DNA from: Candidatus Gastranaerophilales bacterium
Lineage (GTDB): Bacteria > Cyanobacteriota > Vampirovibrionia > Gastranaerophilales > Gastranaerophilaceae
Length of the DNA stretch: 58,235 nt
Direction of reading: 5' to 3'
Assembly: GCA_944323265.1 (NCBI GenBank)
Contig: CALURX010000010.1
Span: forward strand, 1 to 58,235
Part shown: piece by piece, positions 22,701 through 23,213 of the stretch
Numbering within the stretch: the first letter of the stretch is position 1
Layout of the letters: each line of letters begins with the position of its first letter
Made by a program: the position numbers and the translations under genes
The notes under the pieces: generated by a model
Told to the model about the DNA's origin: nothing
Database searches by the model: none
The model's input: only the letters and a program-made list of their open reading frames with translations

Positions 22701-22861
22701 AAAGTGGTGGGCAGGGGTAAGGACTCCGTTGGCGAGCAGCAAAAGGTGACTAAATGTCACGTTTTGCGTTGCGGTGCAGAGCAAACCTCAAGTCAAGCAT
22801 AAGCCAATGGAGGGAGTGAGAACCCGAAAATCTTCGATTTTCGCGTGAGAATCCACCCAAC

Positions 22862-22888
22862 AAAAAAAGACCCCGGAAGGAGTCTTTT
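22862..22888 (-). terminator. Terminator of the tRNA operon (copy B)
   Basis: On the minus strand AAAGACTCC, loop TTCC, GGGGTCTTT then a T-run, five bases past the tRNA-Tyr CCA end. One G-U pair in the stem. Confidence 0.85.
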
Positions 22889-22892
22889 AAAG

Positions 22893-22978
22893 TGGTGGGC
22901 AGGGGTGGATTCGAACCACCGTACACTCTCGTGAACAGATTTACAGTCTGTCGCCTTTAGCCACTCGGCCACCTACCC
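22893..22978 (-). tRNA. tRNA-Tyr (GTA)
   Basis: 86 nt including an encoded CCA. Acceptor stem GGGTAGG pairs with CCTGCCC (one T-G pair). Anticodon loop CTGTAAA gives GTA. The long variable arm is as expected for bacterial tRNA-Tyr, and GGTTCGAATCC is the T arm. Last gene of a three-tRNA cluster. Confidence 0.95.
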
Positions 22979-23000
22979 TTATAAAATTTTCATTTAAATT

Positions 23001-23072
23001 TGCCTTTGACGGGATTTGAACCCGTGGCCTCTCCCTTACCAAGGGAGTGCGCTACCCCTGCGCCACAAAGGC
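23001..23072 (-). tRNA. tRNA-Thr (GGT)
   Basis: 72 nt. Acceptor GCCTTTG pairs with CAAAGGC. Anticodon loop TTGGTAA gives GGT. T arm GGGTTCAAATCCC. CCA is not encoded, unlike the neighbouring tRNA-Tyr. Confidence 0.95.
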
Positions 23073-23121
23073 TTAATGCCGCGAGGGCTTATTTAGTTTT
23101 CAAACACTTTTTGATTTTGGA

Positions 23122-23213
23122 ACCAAGGGAGTGCTGCTACCCTCCTCCATTTCGAACGATACTTAATCGTTCTCAACGGAGTCCTTGCCACAAAGGCTTA
23201 ATGCCGCGAGGGC
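23122..23213 (-). pseudogene. Partial copy of tRNA-Thr 5' half with a hairpin insert
   Basis: The DNA just upstream of tRNA-Thr (GGT) repeats its 5' half and leader. 23187-23213 equals 23062-23088 (27 bp, including CCACAAAGGCTTAATGCC), and 23122-23142 resembles 23038-23057 (anticodon stem and D arm). Between the two matching parts there is about 41 bp of extra sequence with the stem GAACGAT/ATCGTTC framed by CTCC and GGAG. The 3' half is absent, so it cannot be a working tRNA. Confidence 0.75.

What the first reader, a model, noticed from the sequence alone, without database searches (positions are those of the whole stretch)
22719..23213. The same boundary CAACGGAGTCCTT occurs at both tRNA-linked inserts
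Seen: 13 bases CAACGGAGTCCTT occur in the insert beside tRNA-Tyr (minus strand, about 22719-22731) and in the one beside tRNA-Thr (plus strand, about 23174-23186). Each joins directly to a tRNA fragment, and each insert opens with a CTCC-type motif. With ssrA, three of the four RNA genes here show end duplication next to a hairpin-rich insert. Inference: a dispersed small element in this genome that targets structured-RNA genes, possibly previously undescribed.
Basis: partly seen in the sequence, partly recalled or inferred. Interest (0 to 1): 0.72.

Follow-up and report, generated by a model that had tools for sequence, protein, structure and literature searches.

The report
Hairpin elements inserted in tRNA genes
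Short hairpin-forming DNA elements without genes of their own sit at one fixed point, about 11 bases in from either end of many tRNA genes, in one family of gut bacteria, each with a local duplication that leaves an intact tRNA; a family this specific for tRNA genes appears undescribed, and the enzyme that inserts it is unknown.

Summary
CAACGGAGTCCTT (reverse: AAGGACTCCGTTG) is the left end of a dispersed, gene-less, structured element (E), present in opposite orientations at tRNA-Tyr and tRNA-Thr(GGT). E joins a partial copy of a tRNA end (X), forms a covarying hairpin with a TAAAT/TAAGT pentaloop, usually a second hairpin, is often followed by an inverted copy of the target, then by a direct duplication of the tRNA end and its flank, then by the intact tRNA. 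Of 110 distinct fetched units, 65 matched automatically: X ends 11-12 nt into the tRNA in 50 of 52 upstream cases and 11-14 nt from its 3' end in 12 of 13 downstream cases. The intact tRNA lies to the right of E, except at tRNA-Glu(TTC). Some units lie at 5S rRNA, in other hairpin repeats or in intergenic palindromes; ssrA has a similar but motif-less insert. The core motif occurs in 104 of 241 genomes of the order, all in one family (Candidatus Gastranaerophilales), in 0 of 216 genomes of other families of the phylum, and in no viral contig. Best reading: old, repeatedly inserted, non-autonomous elements aimed at hairpin arms of RNA genes; mobiliser unknown. Structural function and template switching remain open.

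The parts
22611..22718 (+). Outer duplicate at tRNA-Tyr: end of an earlier unit (hairpin 2, inverted T-arm copy), terminator, and partial tRNA-Tyr 3' end (22705-22718, read antisense)
   Evidence: 96% identical to 22799-22906 over 108 nt
22719..22858 (+). Element E at tRNA-Tyr: AAGGACTCC left end, hairpin core AAGGTGACTAAATGTCACGTT (22743-22763), closing GGAGG (22809-22813), hairpin 2, inverted T-arm copy GAATCCACCC (22849-22858)
   Evidence: Sequence; genome and family pattern searches
22859..22906 (+). Inner duplicate: terminator region and 3' end of the intact tRNA-Tyr
   Evidence: Direct repeat D1
22893..22978 (-). Intact tRNA-Tyr(GTA)
   Evidence: ARAGORN and Rfam
23001..23072 (-). Intact tRNA-Thr(GGT)
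   Evidence: ARAGORN and Rfam
23062..23088 (-). Inner copy of the 27-nt duplication: 16-nt leader and first 11 nt of tRNA-Thr(GGT)
   Evidence: 100% direct repeat D3
23122..23143 (-). Direct copy of tRNA-Thr D-arm and anticodon-arm sequence that follows the element
   Evidence: Direct repeat D2, 75%
23144..23186 (-). Element E at tRNA-Thr(GGT): AAGGACTCC, hairpin ACGATTAAGTATCGT, GGAGG
   Evidence: Pattern hit G000:C10:23144-23186
23187..23213 (-). Outer copy of the 27-nt duplication (leader and first 11 nt of tRNA-Thr)
   Evidence: 100% direct repeat D3; ancestral-like leader in empty relatives
23243..23314 (-). tRNA-Thr(TGT), no insert
   Evidence: ARAGORN and Rfam
159..321 (-). ssrA 5' end copy (159-190), hairpin-rich insert (191-289), outer copy (290-321); same architecture, hairpin 1 motif absent
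   Evidence: Direct repeat D5, 91%; weak tmRNA hit at 1-181; fold

Best explanation
E is a family of short, gene-less, hairpin-forming elements (the inserted stretch, E plus inverted copy, is mostly about 65-140 nt) that were inserted, many times over a long period, into the hairpin arms of structured-RNA genes. Shown: fixed left end; junction 11-12 nt into a tRNA from its 5' end (D-stem) or 11-14 nt from its 3' end (T-stem); direct duplication of the tRNA end with its leader or trailer; frequent inverted copy of the target that can pair with X into a basal stem; intact tRNA normally on the same side of E; covarying hairpin 1. Inferred: a structure-recognising nuclease, transposase or recombinase acting in trans joins the left end of E to the 5' strand of the exposed arm; repair across the folded target copies a little of it in inverted form and restarts outside the gene, which gives the duplication; insertions are tolerated because an intact RNA gene remains. 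Units then amplify into tandem arrays, decay, or are inherited.
For: Pattern for E: 30 of 58 genus genomes, 0 in reversed control; 51 of 60 distinct units of that set have an intact tRNA to their right, and most of the other 9 are cut by contig ends. Fixed junctions in 65 units. Inverted copy of 8 nt or more in 25 of the 40 units outside tandem arrays, 0 in reversed and complemented controls. Covariation score 0.61 against 0.19, 0 of 500 shuffles. Empty orthologous Thr-Thr spacers of 28-34 nt beside filled ones and a tandem pair. Seven copies with an identical core in intergenic palindromes of G225. Nested elements GCC|AAGGACTCC.
Against: No mobiliser found. Within the genus, cores resemble each other by tRNA (median 0.79) and not by genome (0.69 against 0.66 background, p 0.28), so recent movement is not shown. 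About half of the units lack a clear inverted copy. tRNA-Glu(TTC) breaks the polarity rule.
Confidence: 0.55

Rival explanations
1. The units are functional, vertically inherited structured domains of tRNA loci, for example acting on pre-tRNA transcription or processing, with the structure kept by selection.
For: Compensatory changes in the stem; similarity follows the tRNA rather than the genome; persistence at the same tRNAs in many species.
Against: Empty sites and a decayed remnant in relatives; downstream units lie behind the tRNA terminator and run antisense; copies in intergenic palindromes.
Confidence: 0.2
2. No enzyme is dedicated to the element: template switching at hairpin-forming RNA genes during replication or repair makes the direct and inverted copies, and E spreads passively by such switches and by recombination between tRNA genes.
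For: Inverted target copies and basal stems, hairpin loops found in both orientations (window 22634-22658 and 22822-22846), tandem arrays.
Against: Constant left end and one fixed junction at many different tRNAs; the same E core in palindromes without tRNA homology.
Confidence: 0.18
3. RAYT-type Y1 transposases mobilise E as a REPIN-like element.
For: Y1 genes are more frequent in motif-positive genomes, 46 of 104 against 29 of 137, p 1.5e-4, not corrected for phylogeny; 3 of 8 inspected Y1 genes lie near a tRNA.
Against: Nine of the 16 motif-richest genomes have no detected Y1 gene; several of the Y1 genes inspected are flanked by their own GTAG hairpins, which differ from E.
Confidence: 0.15
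4. Misassembly around repeats.
For: Contigs sometimes end inside arrays.
Against: The same organisation recurs in many independent assemblies, also inside long contigs, with locus-specific duplications.
Confidence: 0.02

Closest known systems
YPAL / RU-2 of Yersinia (PMC2229807)
   Same: Small, gene-less, internal inverted repeats, no terminal TA, duplications of variable length (3-26 bp), targets at or next to dyad symmetry, empty and filled sites.
   Different: YPAL is described as intergenic and about 168 bp; no fixed tRNA-arm junction, inverted target copy or regenerated tRNA is described. No sequence comparison was made here.
REP/REPIN elements with RAYT transposases (PMC3116915)
   Same: Dispersed hairpins, non-autonomous; a Y1 transposase is proposed as mobiliser.
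   Different: E lacks the GTAG tag seen at the Y1-linked hairpins here, has no constant Y1 neighbour, and targets RNA-gene arms.
Rickettsia palindromic elements (cited in PMC2229807)
   Same: Small palindromic repeats, some found in RNA genes (tmRNA, RNase P RNA).
   Different: Those are fused into the RNA gene; here a duplicated intact gene is kept. No sequence comparison was made.
Integrative elements that use tRNA genes as attachment sites
   Same: Partial tRNA copy beside an intact tRNA.
   Different: No integrase and no cargo, both tRNA ends used, duplications extend beyond the tRNA.

Membership tests
Classical MITE | Small, gene-less, target-site duplication | tested here: met
   Inserted stretch mostly 65-140 nt; duplications median 26 nt; no open frame examined in so short an insert
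Classical MITE | Terminal inverted repeats shared with a transposon | tested here: not met
   Left end AAGGACTCC, right end GCC-GTATA; the inverted repeats are internal
REPIN / RAYT | GTAG-tagged hairpins beside a Y1 transposase gene | tested here: not met
   E has no GTAG tag; the inspected Y1 genes carry other hairpins
REPIN / RAYT | Co-occurrence with a Y1 transposase | tested here: inconclusive
   Enriched (p 1.5e-4), but absent from 9 of the 16 motif-richest genomes
YPAL-like hairpin-targeting elements | Targets at dyad symmetry, variable duplications, internal inverted repeats | tested here: met
   D- and T-arms, 5S rRNA, palindromes; duplications of varied length; works like YPAL, membership by sequence untested
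YPAL-like hairpin-targeting elements | Sequence homology to YPAL | not tested
   No YPAL sequence was compared
tRNA-integrating element (tyrosine integrase) | Integrase gene and a copied tRNA end that stops at the crossover | tested here: not met
   Inserts are too short for a gene, and duplications include leader or terminator
Known structured RNA family (Rfam 15) | Match above the family's gathering score | tested here: not met
   Only tRNA and rRNA models reach their gathering score in the loci tested

The most novel reading that the evidence does not exclude
A dedicated, undescribed bacterial insertion system recognises the folded arms of RNA genes, or measures 11 nt from the mature tRNA ends, joins a hairpin element there with fixed polarity, and copies part of the target in inverted form, so that the host RNA gene is regenerated intact.
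Probability: 0.3. Interest if true: 0.88.

Novelty: new variant of a known kind. Interest (0 to 1): 0.68.

Why it matters
tRNA genes are favoured landing sites of mobile DNA, normally for large elements with an integrase. Here a gene-less element uses both ends of tRNA genes at one fixed position through a bacterial family and leaves an intact gene. The junction, the polarity and the inverted target copy give a concrete signature for finding the enzyme, and bear on the open question of how bacterial miniature elements move. The units also leave partial tRNA genes that can mislead annotation.

Tried and rejected
Exact 13-mer as the element (only two places; AAGGACTCC is the general part). Known RNA family (Rfam, none). 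Phage or viral vehicle (viral contigs: 0 for the core motif, one chance hit inside a gene for the looser pattern). Reverse transcriptase as partner (no association). RAYT as sole mobiliser (weak association, many motif-rich genomes without it, different hairpins). Recent burst inside the genus (cores group by tRNA). Literature searches on tRNA-linked repeats in Gastranaerophilales, small dispersed repeats, MITEs and tRNA insertions found no description in the held open-access library.

Full report
Observation. Its reverse complement begins with AAGGACTCC, the left end of an element, here called E. At tRNA-Tyr, E runs on the plus strand (antisense to the tRNA) behind a copy of the tRNA 3' end; at tRNA-Thr(GGT) it runs on the minus strand (tRNA sense) behind a copy of the tRNA 5' end. 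Nine of the twelve AAGGACTCC sites of the genome are at tRNA genes: Tyr, Thr-GGT, Leu-GAG twice, Glu-TTC, Pro-GGG three times, Pro-CGG.

Anatomy. In E orientation a unit reads: leader or trailer L, tRNA fragment X, E (AAGGACTCC, hairpin 1, GGAGG, often GGC-hairpin 2-GCC and GTATA), often an inverted copy of the target, L and X again, then the rest of the intact tRNA. A second start type reads ACYCTGCCGA. A clean example is a tRNA-Glu unit in L153: 44 nt duplicated without mismatch, with a 12-nt inverted copy of the target between E and the second duplicate. Folding gives a three-way junction in many units: X paired with the inverted copy, hairpin 1 and hairpin 2.

Precision. Of 110 distinct units in the fetched loci, 65 could be matched automatically to a tRNA on their right. 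Upstream units end 11 or 12 nt into the tRNA in 50 of 52 cases (ARAGORN sometimes includes one extra base); downstream units end 11-14 nt from the 3' end in 12 of 13 (the larger values include CCA). From the tRNA cloverleaf this is inside the D-stem or the T-stem, about two bases before the loop on the strand that carries E (this reading is mine). The tRNA lies to the right of E; the exception seen is tRNA-Glu(TTC), where it lies to the left. Duplication length has a median of 26 nt and starts at 11; the longest values run into tandem arrays.

Structure under constraint. Forty-two distinct 29-nt hairpin-1 cores give 82.7% paired cells against 59.8% in shuffles and a covariation score of 0.61 against 0.19 (0 of 500 shuffles), while sliding the partner destroys the signal. 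In the listed hits of the family-wide pattern AAGNTGACTAAATGTCANGTT, N and N' were complementary throughout, although the pattern leaves both free. A G.G mismatch below that pair and the pentaloop are conserved in this subtype. Copies are dispersed and related, so this is strong but not proof of selection; quasi-palindrome correction could mimic it.

Distribution. The core motif occurs in 104 of 241 genomes of the order, none of them among the 22 from other families, and in 80 of 386 genomes of the phylum, all in the same family and 0 of 216 outside it (the family total of 170 is my count from the table). Reversed-pattern controls are zero. Named hits of the longer pattern are three Candidatus Gastranaerophilales MAGs and one uncultured bacterium, all near tRNA genes. 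No viral contig holds the core motif.

Other targets. Units lie beside a 5S rRNA gene (L195). In genome G225 seven copies with an identical core sit inside a long intergenic palindrome, in both orientations relative to the flanks. Elements can be nested, GCC|AAGGACTCC, at tRNA-Leu(GAG) in the own genome and in L197. ssrA of the window has a duplicated 5' end with a hairpin insert of similar build but without hairpin 1.

History. At the orthologous Thr-TGT/Thr-GGT spacer several relatives have 28-34 nt and no insert, others have one unit (L088, L089) or a tandem pair (L093), and the close relative G047 has a decayed remnant. Across the genus, cores are more similar at the same tRNA in different genomes (median 0.79) than at different tRNAs in one genome (0.69 against a background of 0.66). 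The family therefore looks old and long-lived at its sites, with gains and losses, and not like a recent burst in this genus.

Mechanism. Shown: constant left end, fixed junction, polarity, direct and inverted target copies, patchy presence. Inferred: an enzyme acting in trans that recognises hairpins and joins E to the 5' strand of an exposed arm, followed by repair that copies the fold. No enzyme is identified. Y1 transposases (RAYT type) are enriched in motif-positive genomes but were not found in 9 of the 16 richest ones; reverse transcriptases show no link. Opposite orientations at one locus (Thr and Tyr here) make a simple lagging-strand model unlikely.

Known kinds. The nearest description is YPAL of Yersinia: internal inverted repeats, duplications of 3-26 bp and targets at dyad symmetry (PMC2229807). 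REPINs (PMC3116915) and Rickettsia palindromic elements are further relatives in kind. Fixed tRNA-arm insertion, inverted target copy and regenerated tRNA are not part of the descriptions read. I file it as a new variant of the miniature hairpin-element kind.

Limits. The genomes are mostly draft metagenome assemblies, one per species, so polymorphism within a species was not tested. Inserts with other hairpins (for example the GCGAG-rich downstream ones) were not modelled. The automatic matching leaves 45 of 110 units: contig ends, tandem or diverged copies, one chance hit in a viral gene, and non-tRNA targets; I inspected these only in part. Loci were collected by motif searches, so proportions describe what those motifs find.

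Noticed in passing
window 22634-22658 against 22822-22846: The loop of the same hairpin is inverted between two otherwise 96% identical copies (GAA against TTC).
   Followed up: partly
L151, L152, L153 (genomes G010, G006, G003): RAYT-type Y1 transposase genes lie within about 400 bp of tRNA genes, two of them beside E units; several Y1 genes in the genus are flanked by GTAG-type hairpins such as GTAGGTCAGGCATTGCCTGAC.
   Followed up: partly
Downstream of tRNA genes, e.g. L056, L060, L076, L081, L083 and L094-L099: A second family of GCGAG-rich hairpin inserts without the TAAAT/TAAGT loop, also ending in a copied tRNA 3' end about 170-250 nt downstream.
   Followed up: no
Upstream of many tRNA genes, e.g. 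L118, L131, L136: A recurrent leader motif close to TTGAAAATTAAATA (resembling, from memory, boxA-type leaders) precedes tRNA genes and is part of the duplicated stretch.
   Followed up: no
window 2579-3018: Imperfect tandem duplication of about 225 bp (three repeat pairs, 88-96% identity).
   Followed up: no
L201 1670-1715 (genome G225): A unit at a tRNA-like 3' fragment (GTGCCTGGAGGGATTCGAACCCCCGACC) without an intact tRNA, possibly an attachment-site remnant of another integrated element.
   Followed up: no
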